Of a stretch of DNA of 39,061 nucleotides, positions 1 to 9,990 are shown in pieces (positions within the stretch are counted from its first letter, which is position 1; the number at the start of each line of letters is the position of its first letter). Location: positions 1 through 39,061 of the forward strand of contig JAFRMK010000004.1 of NCBI GenBank assembly GCA_017430725.1, read 5' to 3'. Origin of the DNA: Candidatus Saccharimonadota bacterium. GTDB taxonomy: Bacteria > Patescibacteriota > Saccharimonadia > Saccharimonadales > Saccharimonadaceae. The notes beneath the pieces were generated by a model. That model saw only the letters and a list, made by a program, of their open reading frames with translations. It had not been told where the DNA came from and ran no database searches. The translations under genes and the position numbers were made by a program.

Positions 1-117
1 GCGTGATTCGTGGTCGTTGTCGCCGAATTGTTTCGACTACGGCAATGCGAACGGGTTCTACTGGTACTCGGGCTCGGGCTACTACAGCGTCCGCGGCACT
101 TATGCGGTGCGTCCCGT
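1..117 (+). repeat. DGR variable repeat (VR)
   Basis: Aligns without gaps to the template repeat at 321-437 (constant offset 320). Differences are at 5, 30, 35, 38, 41, 42, 59, 65, 71, 72, 77, 78, 80, 83, 87, 92, 93, 95, 96 and 101. At every one the template has A and the VR has G, T or C. The 3' end (about 102-117) is an invariant GC-rich stretch that matches the expected initiation-of-mutagenic-homing (IMH) site; homology breaks down from 118 on (CG versus AT), as in IMH versus IMH*. The true 5' limit may lie before base 1. Confidence 0.95.
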
Positions 118-193
118 CGTTTCAATCGCACCCGGAACCGCCATTTCGGCAGGGGATGGAAGCAAAGAGTATCCGTGGGAGCTTGAGCACTAG
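2..193 (+). CDS. DGR target protein, C-terminal variable domain (5' end outside window)
   Basis: Partial gene: 63 residues remain, in the frame that begins at base 2 and ends with TAG. The visible part starts RDSWSLSPN, continues through a Tyr/Gly/Ser-rich stretch (residues 11-34), then AVRPVVSI and a short tail ending WELEH. An aromatic- and Gly-rich stretch followed by a VRPVVS-type end is typical of C-type-lectin-fold variable domains of DGR target proteins, which usually act as binding or adhesion modules. The residues that differ from the template translation are Asn-type codons (AAC/AAT) changed to Asp, Gly, Tyr, Ser, Cys or Arg, the expected outcome of adenine mutagenesis. The ligand and the N-terminal architecture cannot be seen because the window begins inside the gene. 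The fold assignment is inference; the DGR-target role is well supported by the neighbouring TR and RT. Confidence 0.88.
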   Translation, partial: RDSWSLSPNCFDYGNANGFYWYSGSGYYSVRGTYAVRPVVSIAPGTAISAGDGSKEYPWELEH

Positions 194-209
194 GACGTCT
201 TGAGCGATG

Positions 210-258
210 GTTCCGCCTCGAAGACGGAACAAATGCTCGCGAAATCCTTTTCGCGAGC
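210..258. other. Tandem hairpins downstream of VR
   Basis: Two inverted repeats follow the target-gene stop. The first pairs 210-215 with 225-230 (GTTCCG/CGGAAC). The second is a perfect 10-bp stem, 235-244 with 249-258 (GCTCGCGAAA/TTTCGCGAGC), around a 4-base loop. There is no T-run after it, so it is a poor intrinsic terminator. A perfect stem with a 4-base loop downstream of the IMH resembles the hairpin/cruciform that stimulates retrohoming in the Bordetella phage DGR, although here it lies about 120 bases beyond the VR end. Role inferred. Confidence 0.6.
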
Positions 259-268
259 CTAGGTGTAG

Positions 269-274
269 TATAAT
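269..274 (+). promoter_or_regulatory. -10 box of the TR RNA promoter
   Basis: TATAAT at 269-274 would start transcription near 281, about 40 bases before the template repeat. The matching -35 position falls inside the preceding hairpin and is weak. It probably drives the TR RNA and perhaps avd and the RT gene. Confidence 0.6.
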
Positions 275-280
275 TGATGA

Positions 281-680
281 TGAGATTCTTCCGTGAAGTG
301 GCGCCGGTTGGCGTGAGTTCGCGTAATTCGTGGTCGTTGTCGCCGAATTATTTCAACAACAACAATGCGAACGGGTTCAACTGGAACTCGAACTCGAACA
401 ACAACAACGTCAACAACACTAATGCGGTGCGTCCCGTATTTTCACTTTTTGAATCATGGGTTGGTCGTATAGCGCAAGCGACTGCGTGTCGGCTTGAACG
501 TTATGTAAATGGCTCGCCCGATTCACTTTTCATAGGAAAGTGAAACAGGAAGCGTCTCTGGCGTACGGGTTTTTGACCTGTGCCCTAAAACAATTGCCCC
601 AAGTGACTGGTTCTGGCGAATAGCATCATTATTGAGCGCGAAAGTTGGGCTTTTCAGATTGGGGCAGAACCGAGGAAGAA
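281..680 (+). ncRNA. DGR template RNA with structured 3' spacer
   Basis: Proposed non-coding transcript carrying the TR (321-437) and the roughly 240-base spacer up to avd. The spacer is rich in pairing: a 10-bp stem 522-531/535-544 (one G-T pair), and a potential H-type pseudoknot in which 595-602 (TGCCCCAA) pairs with 659-666 (TTGGGGCA) and 609-613 (GGTTC) pairs with 667-671 (GAACC), ending just before the avd ribosome site. In studied DGRs the RNA flanking the TR is bound by Avd-RT and primes cDNA synthesis; assigning that job here is inference. No convincing protein is encoded between 194 and 680. Confidence 0.6.
321..437 (+). repeat. DGR template repeat (TR)
   Basis: Invariant donor copy for the VR at 1-117. 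It has 36 adenines, mostly in AAC/AAT triplets in the frame that matches the target protein, so substitutions generate diverse residues while conserved Trp, Phe, Ser and Gly codons lack adenine. It lies in an intergenic position between target gene and avd, the usual cassette layout. The similarity may extend further 5' than 321, but the VR copy is cut off by the window edge. Confidence 0.95.
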
Positions 681-1061
681 ATGACGACGGATAAACGAAA
701 AGACCCACGCTACCGCTTGCTTGACATGATAATGGATTTGCGTCTTTATAGCAGGACTTATGTTGTGAATAATATCCCGAATGTGCACCGCGATTTGCGC
801 ATTAGATTGCTTGACGAGAGCTATGCTTTGGCGGGGAGCGCGCTGGCGGCGGCTTATACGGTTGGCAATATTCGACGGAAGCATTTGGCCGAAATGTGTG
901 TGGAGTTGGGGAAGATTAATATGATTCTTTCGGAATTAAAAAAGGTACAAGCGATTTCGCCACGAAGACTTAGTGCAATGGCTGGGAAGTTGTCGGATAT
1001 AAAGGACGTGGTGTTTGGTTGGAGGCAGAATGAAGAAGCAAAGAAGGCTACAAAAAAATAG
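681..1061 (+). CDS. avd: Avd-like DGR accessory variability determinant
   Basis: A 126-residue, Arg/Lys- and Leu-rich, all-helical protein of the size and pattern of the Avd four-helix-bundle family, which forms a pentameric barrel that binds the DGR reverse transcriptase and template RNA. Helices can be placed at about 11-32, 36-60, 63-90 and 93-118. It lies between TR and RT, the standard position. ATG 681 is chosen because a purine-rich GAGGAAG (672-678) precedes it; a TTG at 645 in the same frame would add 12 residues overlapping the proposed RNA pseudoknot. The 3' end overlaps the RT gene by 32 bases, suggesting translational coupling. Family call rests on pattern and context, without a profile search. 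Confidence 0.85.
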   Translation: MTTDKRKDPRYRLLDMIMDLRLYSRTYVVNNIPNVHRDLRIRLLDESYALAGSALAAAYTVGNIRRKHLAEMCVELGKINMILSELKKVQAISPRRLSAMAGKLSDIKDVVFGWRQNEEAKKATKK

Positions 1062-2217
1062 TCGCCATATTTATGACGAGGCAGTATCTTACGAAAATTT
1101 GTTTAAGATGTGGAAGACTGTGCGGAAGACTTGCAAGAATAAGCCTTTGCTGATGGCATTTTCACTGAATTTGCATGCGAATTTAGGGAAAATTGAGCAA
1201 GAGCTGAAAACGCGGAGCTATCGGCCACATCGTTTTCGGACTTTTATGATTTTTGAGCCGAAGCCGAGATTGGTGATGAGTCAGTTGATTCGAGACAAGA
1301 TAGTGAATCATTTTGTGGCGAATTTCTTTCTTTTACCCTTGCTGGAGGATTGCTTGATTGACCAGAACGTTGCGACGCGGAAGGGATTCGGGTCGGCTGA
1401 GGCGATGCGCCAGTTGAAAGCGTATTTCGCTTCGATTTTGGCGAAACATCCGGGACAAAAGGTTTATGCGCTGAAGGTTGACGTGAGTAAGTATTTTTAT
1501 AGTATTGAGCATGAGAAATTGATGAGAATGCTTCGCAAGAAGATTTTGGATAAAGATGTGCTTTGGCTGATTAAACTGTTAATTGACGAGACGGATAAGC
1601 CGTATATTAATCGGTCAATTCAGAAGTTCAATCGGCGGTTTTCGACAGATATTCCGGAGTATCGACGGGGGAGAGGGCTGAGTATCGGGGCGATGGCGAG
1701 TCAGTTTCTGGCGATTTATTTTCTGAACGAGCTTGACCACAAAATTAAGGAAGAACTGCGCTGTCGATATTATTTACGCTACATGGATGATTTATTGGTT
1801 TTATCGACGGATAAAAATGAGTTGCGCAAGATACTTGATTGGTTGACGGTTGAATTGGAGAAGTTGGGCCTGACGGTAAATCCAAAATCACGGATTTACA
1901 ATTGCGCAGACGGTTTCGTGTTTTTGGGCTTTCGTTATCGGATCGTAGAAGGACGCCTGCAAGTGTCCTGTGCGGGCGCGACGGTGCGAAGAATTTACCA
2001 GCGGATATTGCTTAAACGGGGGGATTTTTTTGATGGTCCGATGTCGATGGGGCGAGAAGAATTTCGGCAGATGATTGCGAGTTATTGTGGATATTTCGGT
2101 TGTTGCGGAAGGGCGGGGTTGGCACGACTGGAAGGTATGGTGCGGGTGGAGGTAGTCGAAACCTCGTCTTATCCTTGGGAAGGATACATAATAGCCGTTA
2201 TACGACACCCGCAATAG
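1030..2217 (+). CDS. DGR reverse transcriptase
   Basis: A 395-residue retron/group-II-like reverse transcriptase. The first catalytic Asp is in ALKVDVSKYFYSI (D151), the DGR-hallmark motif IGAMASQ (I/V/L-G-x3-S-Q) is at 219-225, and the catalytic YMDD is at 251-254, followed by a LGFRY motif near 299. There is no X/maturase or endonuclease extension; the C-terminal thumb is short, as in DGR RTs. With Avd it would copy the TR RNA into adenine-mutagenised cDNA that replaces the VR. ATG 1030 is preceded by GGAGG (1021-1025) and overlaps the end of avd. The gene ends about 40 bases from the converging tRNA-Asp. All catalytic residues are present, so the element looks active. Confidence 0.95.
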   Translation: MKKQRRLQKNSRHIYDEAVSYENLFKMWKTVRKTCKNKPLLMAFSLNLHANLGKIEQELKTRSYRPHRFRTFMIFEPKPRLVMSQLIRDKIVNHFVANFFLLPLLEDCLIDQNVATRKGFGSAEAMRQLKAYFASILAKHPGQKVYALKVDVSKYFYSIEHEKLMRMLRKKILDKDVLWLIKLLIDETDKPYINRSIQKFNRRFSTDIPEYRRGRGLSIGAMASQFLAIYFLNELDHKIKEELRCRYYLRYMDDLLVLSTDKNELRKILDWLTVELEKLGLTVNPKSRIYNCADGFVFLGFRYRIVEGRLQVSCAGATVRRIYQRILLKRGDFFDGPMSMGREEFRQMIASYCGYFGCCGRAGLARLEGMVRVEVVETSSYPWEGYIIAVIRHPQ

Positions 2218-5877: not shown

Positions 5878-7683
5878 ATGAGAAAGACATGGGCTTTTCT
5901 GCGAATAGTGGTGGTGGTCTTCGTGGCGAGCTTTTGTATTGGCATGGCGGCGAATGACGCTTATGCTGTTGACGGTGGAGATGGGGGCGAAGCGACGCCG
6001 GCCATAGAAGGTTCGCAAGATGACAACGATGAGGTGAGCGACAATGATGAAGCGCCTGATAATGTTGGCGCTGTTCCGACAGAAGGCGGCGAGGAGACGC
6101 CGGGCGAGGACGGGGCAGAGGACGATGAGTCCGAGGCCCAGGAGTGGGATGTGTCGAAATCAAAGGAAGCAACGGAGCTTGACGAAAACGGCCAAACCGA
6201 AGTCACGCTGTCTTTGCCGTCGAGCGAAGAGAACTTGGCAAGTGATATCGTGTTCGTGATTGATAATTCGAGCTGTAAATCCGAGACTATGAAAGATGGC
6301 TTGAAGCTGGTCGACGACTTGTATGCTCAGGTGCAAAATGATGACGGAACGAAGATAAAGATTGCAATCGTGGTCTTTAAGGGTGATTCGCAAGTAAAGC
6401 AAGAGCTGACGGAGCTGTCGGGTGATAACGTAGATGCGATGAAAGCTTTGATTACAGAGGGATACACGACGCCTCCGTTTGGTGGTTCGAATATTCATGA
6501 TGGCCTATTGAAGGCCGATGAGATTTTGAAGGCAGACACGGCAGTTACCGATGCGCGTAAGTATGTCATATTGGTGACGGACGGCCTGACGCGGTTGTGG
6601 ACTGCGGATGATGGCACGGTGATGGATATTTATTACCAGATGTACAGTGAGGTCGGGAACAAGGCGCAATATTGGGGCGAGCCGTCATCGTGGTCCGCGG
6701 TACGTGGCGTGAGAGACGGTAGCTATGCGATTCCTGGTGGCGATTGGGATAGCTATTTAGCGCAAGTTGAGGCATGGGTGGCGGCCGATGGCGATGATTA
6801 TGCCTATCCATTTAACGGAAAGAATATCTACAGCAGTACTGCAAGTTTGCCAGAAGACTTTGTCTATGTGCCGCACAACGACAAGAACCACGCCGTTTCG
6901 ATGGACCGGGCAATCTATGAAGCCTTGAAGCAGTGGCGCCAGATGGCGGAAAACTACCATGTTTATGCGGTTAAATCCGGTTCGAACAGTCCTTTGACGG
7001 TCGCGTTGATTGACGAGATGAACGGTGGGGAAGCGATGGACTTTACGAAGGTTGGTAAAGACATTTTGTACCTGTTGGGAAGCGGAAGCAAGGTGGTGGA
7101 TGTTATCGGTGAGGATTTCGATTTGCGCGATATGGACAGTTTCGAGCTGACCGTAACGGATGTTAACGGCGAGGCGAAACCGGCGCTGACGAAGAGTATT
7201 GAGGGTAAGGTCGTGAAGTTTGCGAACGCTGATGGTGGAGTTGAATTCACGATTGAGTACGATGCGGACGGCGAAAGCTTCACTTGGAACATTTTGCGGA
7301 GCATCTCTAATTTCGAACGAGTTTCTTTACGCTATGTATTGCAACTAGTTAACAAAGAAACCGCGGCGGGCGAATATACTGTTCCGACGAACGAAGTCGC
7401 AACGCTTTATCCGATTGACTCTGAAGGCAATGAACGCGAGGCGGAGGACTTTGAGCAGCCCTTTGTATCCTATGTCGTTGAAGAGGGCGAGCCGGGTAAA
7501 GGCGGCGACGACGAGATGGAGCCAGAAGAGACGCCGGCGGAGGTCGCGACTGAAGAAGTGGCCGGAGCGGTTAATTTGAATCCGAATACGGCGGATAGTC
7601 TGACGGCTGTCTTGGGCGTGGCACTGTTATCGGCGTTGGCTGGTGTGGCGGCGATTGTCTACGCTCGGCGCGCAGGAGCCTAA
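5878..7683 (+). CDS. Sortase-type cell-surface vWA-domain protein
   Basis: 601 residues. Signal peptide at 1-30 (basic MRK, hydrophobic core, ANDAYA cleavage region), a highly acidic low-complexity stalk (31-90), then a von Willebrand A domain: DIVFVIDNSSC (MIDAS D129, S131), GGSNI (S204 in the MIDAS Thr position) and VTDG (D235). The usual DxSxS has Cys133 in place of the last Ser. After a beta-rich region (about 370-530) and a second acidic linker, the C-terminus has NPNTAD, a membrane segment and RRAGA, which matches a sorting signal of NPxTx/LPNTA type that fits the class-B-like sortase encoded 1.6 kb downstream. Probably the adhesive tip of a surface fibre. Start chosen at ATG 5878 after GGGAGAAAG. 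Confidence 0.85.
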   Translation: MRKTWAFLRIVVVVFVASFCIGMAANDAYAVDGGDGGEATPAIEGSQDDNDEVSDNDEAPDNVGAVPTEGGEETPGEDGAEDDESEAQEWDVSKSKEATELDENGQTEVTLSLPSSEENLASDIVFVIDNSSCKSETMKDGLKLVDDLYAQVQNDDGTKIKIAIVVFKGDSQVKQELTELSGDNVDAMKALITEGYTTPPFGGSNIHDGLLKADEILKADTAVTDARKYVILVTDGLTRLWTADDGTVMDIYYQMYSEVGNKAQYWGEPSSWSAVRGVRDGSYAIPGGDWDSYLAQVEAWVAADGDDYAYPFNGKNIYSSTASLPEDFVYVPHNDKNHAVSMDRAIYEALKQWRQMAENYHVYAVKSGSNSPLTVALIDEMNGGEAMDFTKVGKDILYLLGSGSKVVDVIGEDFDLRDMDSFELTVTDVNGEAKPALTKSIEGKVVKFANADGGVEFTIEYDADGESFTWNILRSISNFERVSLRYVLQLVNKETAAGEYTVPTNEVATLYPIDSEGNEREAEDFEQPFVSYVVEEGEPGKGGDDEMEPEETPAEVATEEVAGAVNLNPNTADSLTAVLGVALLSALAGVAAIVYARRAGA

Positions 7684-7694
7684 TATAATAACAC

Positions 7695-7724
7695 AAAAAA
7701 TCCCTCGTTCTTGGGGGATTTTTT
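7695..7724 (+). terminator. Intrinsic terminator after the vWA gene
   Basis: AAAAAATCCC (7695-7704) pairs with GGGATTTTTT (7715-7724), closing with a T-run; it separates the vWA gene from the pilin-sortase genes. Confidence 0.9.
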
Positions 7725-7846
7725 GATGGCGGAAAAAACTGTTTCAAAAATAATGTACTCGTGCTTTTTTGTCGTTGCGTGAGGTGTTTAAATGGGGGCA
7801 CGAATTCATTGGCCGTGAGTCCGCTATAAGATAAAGAAGGAGGAAA

Positions 7847-8920
7847 ATGAAAAAATTTATGCAGAGCTTGGCGTTGTCTGTGATGGCGCTGGCGACAGCG
7901 ATGACTGGTGCGCCAGCGCTGGCCGCCGAAACGGGGATCACGAACGGGGCAAATAATGTCGTGGTAAGGCGAGAAGTGGCGGATTCGGTGAACCCGGTAT
8001 CGGCGACATTTATGTATTCGATGACGGCGGACGAGAGTAATCCGGCGGAAATTGGCGGATTAGCTAACTTTAGTTTGCAGTTGAGTGGTGCGGCGTCGAA
8101 TGGAGGCGTTTCGATGGGCGAAAAGGTGGTTAATTTATCGGATTTAAGCTTTACGAAAGTGGGCGACTATCGCATCATCATTCGCGAGATTGGTAGCTCG
8201 AACGAACAGAATTTTCCGGTAGATAATGAAAACTATTATGTTGTGTTTGTTGAAGTGCGTAATGAGATGGACGGAAGCAGGCCGACGGGCAATTTGGTGG
8301 CAAGCGTGGCGGACCAAGTGGCCGATAGTTACGGCGAAAAGCGCGACAAGGCGGTGTTTTGGTCGACGGCAAGACGAACACATATTGAATTGTCCAAGAC
8401 GGTTGCGGGAGATAACGCCGATTTGGACAAATATTTCAAATTCAGAATAGATTTCCGGAACGCAAGTCAGGGTGACGTCTTTTCGATAACGGGACAAGAC
8501 GAAGTCGTGGAATATAATGGTCAAAGTATCCGCACGCAAACGCAGTACGTGGTCGGCGAAGAGAACTATGTTTATCTGAAAGCCGGGCAGACTGTAGTTG
8601 TGGGTGAAAATGGGCAAAACGAATTGCCGATTGGTCTGGAGTACACGATTACGGAGCTTGATGCAGGCGATTATGAGACCTATATCGACGGAGGCGCAGA
8701 TGATGGAAAAGCTTCACGCCGAAAATTGACCTTGAGCGAATATGGCCCAAACAATAACGGTATGTCGTTTGCGGAAGAAAATATAACAAACTTTGAAAAC
8801 GTCAAAAATGGCGCAGTTTTGACGGGCGTGTCGACAGCGGTGCTGCCGTTTGTGGGAATAGTCCTACTTGGGGTGACGGCGGTTTTCGTCTATCGAGCGG
8901 TTTCGCGCAAAAAGAACTAA
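7847..8920 (+). CDS. Pilin-like surface protein with isopeptide-type domains
   Basis: 357 residues. Signal peptide 1-27 (MKKFMQ... ending ALAAE). Two Ig-like beta domains follow. The first (about 35-170) resembles Spy0128/FctA-type pilin repeats but has Arg where the bond-forming Lys is expected. The second (about 178-320) has all three elements of an intramolecular isopeptide bond: K184 in ELSKTV, E270 in YTITE and N318 in NFEN. The C-terminus has a hydrophobic segment (about 331-350) and RKKN tail, with only a loose sorting motif (VLTG, 324-327) before it. Likely shaft pilin or anchored fibre subunit, linked by the nearby sortase. AAGGAGG lies 4 bases before the ATG; TATAAG at 7825-7830 is a weak promoter candidate. 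Confidence 0.85.
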   Translation: MKKFMQSLALSVMALATAMTGAPALAAETGITNGANNVVVRREVADSVNPVSATFMYSMTADESNPAEIGGLANFSLQLSGAASNGGVSMGEKVVNLSDLSFTKVGDYRIIIREIGSSNEQNFPVDNENYYVVFVEVRNEMDGSRPTGNLVASVADQVADSYGEKRDKAVFWSTARRTHIELSKTVAGDNADLDKYFKFRIDFRNASQGDVFSITGQDEVVEYNGQSIRTQTQYVVGEENYVYLKAGQTVVVGENGQNELPIGLEYTITELDAGDYETYIDGGADDGKASRRKLTLSEYGPNNNGMSFAEENITNFENVKNGAVLTGVSTAVLPFVGIVLLGVTAVFVYRAVSRKKN

Positions 8921-8932
8921 ATTTAACTTGCT

Positions 8933-8961
8933 GGGCCGTCGCTTGTTATGGGCGACGGCCC
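8933..8961 (+). other. Stable intra-operon hairpin
   Basis: Perfect 10-bp GC-rich stem GGGCCGTCGC/GCGACGGCCC (8933-8942/8952-8961) with a 9-base loop between the pilin stop and the SipA-like gene. No T-run follows, so it may be a processing or mRNA-stability element that lets the pilin be made in excess over the downstream enzymes. Confidence 0.6.
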
Positions 8962-8972
8962 GGTTCGAATAG

Positions 8973-9290
8973 ATGTTGAAAATTGAAAAACGGTGGCGGG
9001 ACAGACTTGATTGGTGGTGCGTGGGGCGGATTTGGATGCTTTTGGTGGCGTTTTGGCTATGTTTTGGTTGGGCGTTAGGGTTTTATCGCGCAAATGGCGA
9101 AGAAGGGGGCGGTTTACGTGATGGCGATCTGGTGATTTACGATAAAATTGTTCGGCAATATGGCTACGAAGATGCGGTGTTATATGAGAAAGACGGCGTG
9201 CGAGTTAGCGAATATGCTGCGATGAATGGAGGGGAACTGCGAGGTAGGATATTGGTTTTGCTGAGAGTGCGAGGGGTAGGCGATGAATAG
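8973..9290 (+). CDS. SipA-like non-catalytic signal peptidase homologue
   Basis: 105 residues: one membrane segment (about 20-37), then LRDGDLVIYDKI, which matches the GDLV region of S26 signal peptidases, YEDAVLYE, and a C-terminal GRILVLLRVRG that matches the family's GxxxxxxxxRG end. The catalytic Ser that normally sits a few residues before GDLV and the Lys of the YxKRV motif are both absent. Non-catalytic signal-peptidase-like proteins (SipA) are encoded in streptococcal pilus islands and are needed for pilus assembly, so a chaperone-like role with the pilin and sortase is reasonable here. ATG 8973 has no visible ribosome site. The assignment is moderate because the protein is short. Confidence 0.6.
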   Translation: MLKIEKRWRDRLDWWCVGRIWMLLVAFWLCFGWALGFYRANGEEGGGLRDGDLVIYDKIVRQYGYEDAVLYEKDGVRVSEYAAMNGGELRGRILVLLRVRGVGDE

Positions 9291-9315
9291 TTTGTTGCAT
9301 TGACTGGAGGTGGGC

Positions 9316-9990
9316 TTGCGAAGAATGTGGGCGGTGGTGCTAGCGGCGATGTTGGCGGTGAGCGGTTATGTTATATGGGATGCGGAGTTCGTAGCGCAAA
9401 GTGCTGTCGTCTTTGCGGACGATGCAGCGGTCGGCGAATCGCTGAAGGCGGCAAGTGCGCAAAGCAAGAATCTGGCGGGGTGGATTAAAATAGACGAAAC
9501 AAAGATTAATCAGCCAATTATGCAGGGAGCGGACAACGATTATTATCTAAGACATAATTATCGAGACGAGTATGCGACGGCAGGGAGCGTCTTTTTGGAT
9601 TATCGTAACGCAAAGGACTGGAGCGATGATTTTTCGATTGTTTATGGGCATCGGATGGATGGGCGATTGATGTTTGGCGATGTGCGTTCGTTTGAGGATG
9701 ATGAGTTTTTTGCTGAGCACGAATGGGGCAGCTTGAGTAGCGATACGAAAAATTGGCGCGTGCATGTTCTGGGCTATGCCGTAATAGACGCAACAGAGAA
9801 ACTATATAGCGTCAAATCTTTTTCGAGGGGAAGAAACCAGGACGTGTTGAGGCTTATCGGGCAGAAAAAGCTACAATGGCGCGATGGATATGAGGGCGGA
9901 AGCTTGGTGTTGTTGTCGACTTGTGACAATAACTCGCGCTTATATAGGGATGTTTTGTTGGTAGAATTGCGGGAGGAAGATGGTGCATAA
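9316..9990 (+). CDS. Class-B-like sortase (surface-protein transpeptidase)
   Basis: 224 residues. An N-terminal membrane segment (about 4-22) is followed by the sortase barrel: IDETKINQPIMQG, YLRHNYRDEYATAGSVFLDYRNA, FSIVYGHRMDGRLMFGDV (catalytic His) and SLVLLSTCDNNSRLYR (catalytic Cys and Arg). The GHRM...MFGDL and LSTC...xR signatures are of the SrtB type, which favours NPxT-like sorting motifs such as the NPNTAD seen in the vWA protein. GGAGG at 9306-9310 fits a TTG start at 9316; GTG 9310 overlaps the ribosome site and ATG 9325 would be 14 bases away. It is the last gene of the pilin operon and would anchor or polymerise the two surface proteins. Confidence 0.92.
   Translation: MRRMWAVVLAAMLAVSGYVIWDAEFVAQSAVVFADDAAVGESLKAASAQSKNLAGWIKIDETKINQPIMQGADNDYYLRHNYRDEYATAGSVFLDYRNAKDWSDDFSIVYGHRMDGRLMFGDVRSFEDDEFFAEHEWGSLSSDTKNWRVHVLGYAVIDATEKLYSVKSFSRGRNQDVLRLIGQKKLQWRDGYEGGSLVLLSTCDNNSRLYRDVLLVELREEDGA

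What the first reader, a model, noticed from the sequence alone, without database searches (positions are those of the whole stretch)
1..2217. Apparently active diversity-generating retroelement with pure adenine mutagenesis
VR (1-117) and TR (321-437) align without gaps; all 20 differences fall on TR adenines (20 of 36), and none of 81 non-adenines changed. avd and an RT with the DGR motif IGAMASQ and intact YMDD follow. The clean pattern implies that mutagenic homing is recent or ongoing. DGRs are known to be enriched in CPR bacteria; the ligand and biological use in this lineage remain open.
Basis: partly seen in the sequence, partly recalled or inferred. Interest (0 to 1): 0.92.

Follow-up and report, generated by a model that had tools for sequence, protein, structure and literature searches.

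The report
Bacterial self-mutating surface protein cassette
A tiny-genome bacterium carries a genuine gene cassette that rewrites one part of a probable surface-binding protein by copying it with errors at adenines, and family trees show that the cassette was most likely acquired long ago from gut-type Firmicutes (Bacilli) rather than from its own relatives.

Summary
VR 1-117 and TR 321-437 align without gaps, with 20 differences, all on TR adenines (20/36 A, 0/81 non-A; p about 4e-13). Avd (681-1061) and an RT (1030-2217; IGAMASQ, YMDD) follow. The RT's best solved relative is the BPP-1 DGR RT, and the modelled Avd superposes on BPP-1 Avd, so this is a real DGR. Adenine-only divergence is normal for DGRs (20 of 30 pairs scanned have no non-A mismatch). 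It shows homing since the last few percent of divergence, not present activity.
New here: (1) a second complete DGR in the same genome, whose whole target has a signal-peptide-like start and a sortase-like tail; (2) the RTs of both, plus one congener, nest inside RTs of a Bacilli family (100/99), and a clade with the window's own family's RTs is rejected (p-AU 5e-77), so the cassette crossed phyla; (3) an IMH/IMH* difference and a post-VR hairpin (235-258), shared with Bacilli relatives, with loop TCCT/ACCC instead of phage GRNA; (4) Bacilli relatives' RTs carry a C-terminal MutS domain I, absent here, where the RT ends antisense to a tRNA-Gly gene. The target's N-terminus is lost at the contig edge.

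The parts
2..193 (+). 3' end of the DGR target gene (63 codons seen, stop 191-193; 5' part beyond contig edge)
   Evidence: C-terminal homologues in the same genus and in Bacilli DGR loci
1..117 (+). variable repeat (VR)
   Evidence: 20 of 36 TR adenines changed, 0 of 81 other sites
107..123 (+). IMH-like 3' end of VR: GTGCGTCCCGT then CGTTTC
   Evidence: TR has ATTTTC at the same place; same or near-identical contrast in own C9, G202 and several Bacilli relatives
235..258 (+). hairpin downstream of VR, 10-bp stem, 4-nt loop TCCT, GAAA/TTTC at the top of the stem
   Evidence: present after VR and not after TR; like hairpins in own C9, G202 and most Bacilli relatives; only 2 of 332 segments of the window hold a 9-bp stem with 4-nt loop
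321..437 (+). template repeat (TR)
   Evidence: 17 AAY codons and no third-position A in the VR frame
427..443 (+). IMH*-like end of TR: GTGCGTCCCGT then ATTTTC
681..1061 (+). avd, accessory variability determinant (126 aa, GAGGAAG before ATG)
   Evidence: NF033474 E 4e-5, below its cut-off; PHROG 3206 'Avd protein of DGR' E 2e-4; AlphaFold model pLDDT 89.8, TM 0.77/0.88, rmsd 1.5 to 4dwl
1030..2217 (+). DGR reverse transcriptase (IGAMASQ, YMDD); start overlaps the avd end by 32 nt
   Evidence: best PDB hit 8ub7 (DGR RT) E 8.5e-26 against 1e-11 for the next, a group II type RT; PHROG 1423 E 1e-78; tree
2138..2212 (-). tRNA-Gly(CCC), antisense to about the last 25 codons of the RT ORF; followed by tRNA-Asp 2259-2335
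   Evidence: ARAGORN and Rfam RF00005 56 bits
5878..9990 (+). context: VWA/GBS104-like tip pilin, second surface protein, sortase (a sortase-dependent pilus-type operon)
   Evidence: PF21426, PF00092, PF24547; sortase PF04203 E 5e-5, below its cut-off; genome has 4 sortase-like genes

Best explanation
A functional-looking chromosomal diversity-generating retroelement. The TR is transcribed, the Avd-RT complex copies the TR RNA into cDNA with errors at adenines, and the cDNA replaces the VR at the 3' end of a target gene, guided by the IMH and the hairpin downstream of VR. The VR encodes the C-terminal ligand-binding surface (C-type-lectin-like, DUF6273-like) of a probable exported adhesin of a host-dependent, CPR-type bacterium, so repeated homing varies what its cells bind. 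The cassette (RT, Avd, TR/VR, hairpin) was acquired horizontally from a Bacilli lineage, exists in two diverged copies in this genome, and its composition has since adapted to the host. Shown: anatomy, family membership of RT and Avd, A-only divergence, nesting in Bacilli, second copy. Inferred: transcription, present activity, surface location and ligand role of the target, direction of transfer.
For: A-only pattern, also in own C9 25/35 A and G202 25/34 A; RT; Avd; IMH/IMH*, hairpin; RT nested in Bacilli: 11 rows 100/99, 16 rows 100/100; one clade for the own family p-AU 5e-77; Bacilli without these three p-AU 0.002; GC 0.47 here against 0.20-0.31 in Bacilli relatives = old transfer; uL30 absent, present in 13 of 14 controls: a CPR trait; targets.
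Against: No reads or strains, so activity is untested. The target's N-terminus is missing. The RT lacks the C-terminal extension of its relatives and ends antisense to a tRNA gene. The hairpin loop is not the GRNA consensus, and its distance (118 bp) exceeds the published 4-34 bp. The three CPR RTs form one clade with only 85/96 support. The naming of the donor family rests on MAG titles.
Confidence: 0.88

Rival explanations
1. A DGR that was active until recently but is now silent: the RT lost its C-terminal domain where it runs into the tRNA-Gly gene, and the A-only pattern is a relic.
For: RT 397 aa against 426-510 aa in its nearest relatives, about the last 25 codons antisense to tRNA-Gly.
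Against: 0 of 81 non-A changes; the RT core is complete, the alignment to the DGR RT 8ub7 (328 aa) covers residues 11-323; active-site and SQ motifs are intact.
Confidence: 0.15
2. Transfer in the other direction, or older shared inheritance: the DGR clade belongs to CPR and Bacilli took it.
For: Direction rests only on nesting; within the innermost 11-row clade some forks are open.
Against: Three CPR rows lie inside 13-21 Bacilli rows at several levels; holding Bacilli together without them is rejected, p-AU 0.002.
Confidence: 0.08
3. Not a DGR: VR and TR are diverged paralogous gene ends beside a group II intron or retron-type RT.
For: Generic RT models (group II, DRT) also score.
Against: A-only mismatches p 4e-13; DGR RT is the best structural relative by 14 orders of magnitude; Avd fold; group II outgroup separated 100/100.
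Confidence: 0.01
4. Mis-binned contig: the DGR belongs to a Bacilli genome.
For: RT affinity to Bacilli.
Against: GC 0.50 across the contig against 0.20-0.31 in Bacilli relatives; the genome's second DGR lies on another contig of 114 kb and a congener's on a contig of 106 kb.
Confidence: 0.02

Closest known systems
Bordetella phage BPP-1 DGR (mtd, avd, TR, brt)
   Same: A-specific VR/TR divergence, Avd fold, RT family, IMH end of VR, hairpin with 4-nt loop after VR
   Different: Chromosomal, not phage; order VR-TR-avd-RT instead of VR-avd-TR-RT; loop TCCT not GAAA; hairpin 118 bp from VR; RT only distantly related (E 8.5e-26)
DGRs of a gut/rumen-type Bacilli family (L030, L031, L032, G436, G405, G378, G439, G387)
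   Same: RT 43-54% identical over the matched stretch; near-identical TR layout; same VR-TR-avd-RT order in L032; hairpins with GAAA-ACCC-TTTC; target tail VRPVVSL...GDGS..NPY
   Different: GC 20-31%; RT carries a C-terminal MutS domain I, missing here
Second DGR of the same genome (G000:C9) and of congener G202
   Same: RT clade, hairpin, A-only pattern
   Different: TR lies after RT; target ends in a sortase-like tail (NPQTA / NPATS), so the hairpin lies inside the coding region; window target stops before any such tail
CPR DGR clade 2 of Roux et al. 2021 (PMC8144416)
   Same: Cell-encoded DGR of a CPR bacterium
   Different: RT groups with Bacilli DGRs instead; clade 2 is described as restricted to CPR, mostly aquatic, with targets lacking recognisable membrane domains

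Membership tests
Diversity-generating retroelement (DGR) | VR and TR differ (almost) only at TR adenines | tested here: met
   20/20 on A, p 4.3e-13
Diversity-generating retroelement (DGR) | RT of the DGR family with SQ motif and YxDD | tested here: met
Diversity-generating retroelement (DGR) | Avd-type accessory protein | tested here: met
   weak sequence match, clear fold match to 4dwl and the 8ub7 Avd chains
Diversity-generating retroelement (DGR) | IMH at VR end, IMH* at TR end | tested here: met
   CGTTTC against ATTTTC after a shared GTGCGTCCCGT, contrast conserved in several relatives; function not tested
Diversity-generating retroelement (DGR) | Post-VR hairpin, 7-10 bp GC-rich stem, loop GRNA, 4-34 bp from VR (phage DGRs, PMC3240598) | tested here: inconclusive
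   hairpin present (10 bp, 4-nt loop) but loop TCCT and distance 118 bp
Diversity-generating retroelement (DGR) | VR in a C-type lectin-fold domain of the target | tested here: inconclusive
   only 63 aa of target seen; DUF6273 weak for the TR frame (E 0.025) and near cut-off for the L032 target (E 1e-4)
Diversity-generating retroelement (DGR) | Mutagenic homing takes place | not testable with these tools
   needs reads, strains or an assay
CPR-specific DGR clade (clade 2 of PMC8144416) | RT groups with RTs of other CPR bacteria | tested here: not met
   one clade with own-family RTs rejected, p-AU 5e-77; clade 2 reference sequences themselves were not on hand
CPR / Patescibacteria host | Very small genome and no uL30 | tested here: met
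   688,696 bp at 98.4% completeness; PF00327 absent, found in 13 of 14 controls; no named relative was compared

The most novel reading that the evidence does not exclude
The Bacilli clade from which this DGR came fuses its RT to a MutS mismatch-recognition domain I (PF01624; the predicted fold finds MutS in all 50 listed PDB hits). This domain may bind the mismatched cDNA-target duplex, or the post-VR hairpin, and so shield or steer mutagenic homing; the lineage that moved into CPR lost it and changed target anchoring to sortase in one copy.
Probability: 0.3. Interest if true: 0.75.

Novelty: new member of a known kind. Interest (0 to 1): 0.5.

Why it matters
DGRs are known to be enriched in CPR, but a large survey places CPR DGRs mainly in a clade of their own. 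This genome shows a Bacilli-type cassette inside a CPR genus, in two copies, carrying its cis-acting hairpin and target domain along. That makes testable which parts of a DGR move together, and whether a parasite-like bacterium took over the binding-protein diversifier of other bacteria of its habitat. The RT-MutS domain I fusion in the donor clade offers a direct handle on how mutagenic cDNA meets mismatch repair.

Tried and rejected
Missing target 5' end on other contig ends: none found. Exact TR stretch in viral contigs: 0 matches; the RT finds one distant relative there, 28% identical. The third 15-mer hit in the genome (C5:35993) lies in an ABC transporter gene, chance. Terminator reading of the 235-258 hairpin: no T-run on the sense strand, and in C9 and G202 the hairpin lies inside the ORF. 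Remnant MutS domain I in the C9 and G202 RTs: not supported (hhalign E 0.66; no Pfam hit). The MutS I profile by sequence alone finds no MutS in PDB; the fold does. Structure of the 63-aa target fragment was not attempted (too short).

Full report
Observation. VR 1-117 and TR 321-437 align over 117 columns without gaps; 20 differences, all on TR adenines (36 A), none on the other 81 bases; p 4.3e-13 if differences fell at random. TR adenines lie only at codon positions 1 and 2 of the VR frame, mostly in AAC (13) and AAT (4); such codons cannot become stops, and AAC is the codon favoured in native DGR templates (PMC12875486). The window is a whole contig, cut at VR base 1. The rest of the target is in no contig end, and the TR has no other VR in the assembly.

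Identity. The RT's closest solved chain is 8ub7_A (E 8.5e-26), then group II type RTs (1e-11); one search prints the title of 8ub7 as a DGR ribonucleoprotein RT. PHROG 1423 matches at 1e-78. Group II intron RTs stand apart with 100/100 support. Avd matches Avd families weakly by sequence, but its model (pLDDT 89.8) superposes on BPP-1 Avd 4dwl_C at TM 0.77/0.88, rmsd 1.5. Foldseek E-values there are modest (about 0.01), as usual for four-helix bundles, and the same fold is shared by S23-type proteins (2gsc, 2rld), so the Avd call rests on fold, sequence and place together. This is a DGR.

Cis elements. After the shared GTGCGTCCCGT, VR continues CGTTTC and TR ATTTTC. The same or a near-identical contrast is seen in own C9, G202, L032, G436, G378, G439 and G387, as expected of IMH and IMH*. 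A hairpin follows VR (235-258, GCTCGCGAAA-TCCT-TTTCGCGAGC) and not TR. Most relatives of the clade have one: 9-12 bp, 4-nt loop, often GAAA-ACCC-TTTC, absent after TR. Stems of 9 bp or more with a 4-nt loop occur in 2 of 332 segments of 220 bases of this window. In BPP-1 this hairpin is needed for homing and phage loops read GRNA at 4-34 bp (PMC3240598). Here the loops and distances (44-123 bp) differ. Two more distant family DGRs do carry GRNA-type loops (L071 GAAA, L067 GACA).

Activity. Adenine purity is usual: 20 of 30 VR/TR pairs scanned show no non-A mismatch (the scan favours such pairs, so this count leans upward). 0/81 bounds non-A divergence at about 3.7%, so homing has happened since then. 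Present activity is open; in a survey 50-75% of DGRs showed recent activity from reads (PMC8144416).

Second DGR. G000:C9 holds target (542 aa), avd, RT and TR (L009: 1826-3454, 3473-3940, 3897-5192, 5235-5359), 25 of 35 A changed and 2 non-A in 125. Its target starts like a signal peptide and ends NPQTADM..., hydrophobic, RKTARR, like a sortase signal (by eye); the genome has four sortase-like genes. Congener G202 has the same type. The target in the window ends right after the lectin-like tail (GDGSKEYPWELEH), like the Bacilli targets.

Origin. RT tree of 64 rows and careful tree of 35 rows: window RT, C9 RT and G202 RT sit in a clade with 8 RTs of a Bacilli family (100/99), itself within 13-21 Bacilli RTs (100/100). 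Most RTs of the window's own family lie elsewhere. Holding own-family RTs together is rejected (p-AU 5e-77); holding Bacilli together without the three is rejected (p-AU 0.002). The family is that of the MAG titled uncultured Erysipelotrichaceae (L032) and includes the MAG titled Tenericutes (L031). GC of the cassette is 0.47 in a 0.50 contig, against 0.20-0.31 in the donor-type loci: an old transfer. Host: small genome and no uL30 fit CPR; a Saccharibacteria affiliation is my inference and was not tested.

RT end. The RT ORF runs through the antisense of tRNA-Gly(CCC) 2138-2212. The closest Bacilli relatives are mostly 458-510 aa with an extra C-terminal domain. Pfam MutS_I scores over its cut-off in six of the eight checked, and the predicted fold (pLDDT 74.6) has MutS in all 50 listed PDB hits. 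The window RT lacks it. Two literature searches found no report of such a fusion, which is not proof of absence.

Verdict. A genuine DGR, new member of a known kind, with an inter-phylum origin and lineage-specific cis elements as the surprising parts.

Noticed in passing
L030:951-2438, L031:636-2117 and loci L095, L096, L097, L099, L101 (RT C-termini): DGR RTs of the Bacilli clade carry a C-terminal MutS domain I (FYE motif of MutS reads FYK/FYY), a fusion not found in the papers searched.
   Followed up: yes
window 2138-2217: RT ORF end overlaps an antisense tRNA-Gly(CCC) gene; the second DGR (L009) also has a tRNA-like stretch (about 1566-1640) upstream of its target, which may point to insertion at tRNA genes.
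   Followed up: partly
L009:1826-5370 (G000:C9): Second complete DGR in the same genome with a sortase-type target and TR downstream of RT.
   Followed up: yes
L032, L120, L124 and the window: Contigs break within about 130 bases of VR in four DGR loci, perhaps because VR diversity or paralogous targets break assemblies.
   Followed up: no
loci L072-L090, several genomes of the genus: Large paralogous families (up to 9 matches per genome) of proteins with the same C-terminal domain as the target, in genomes without a detected close RT; possible reservoir of VR domains.
   Followed up: partly
window 5878-9990: Sortase-dependent pilus-type operon (VWA/GBS104-like tip protein, second surface protein, sortase-like gene) near the DGR.
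   Followed up: partly
L071 after VR, L067 after VR: Other DGR lineages of the same family carry GAAA or GACA hairpin loops, so loop type differs by DGR lineage within one host family.
   Followed up: no
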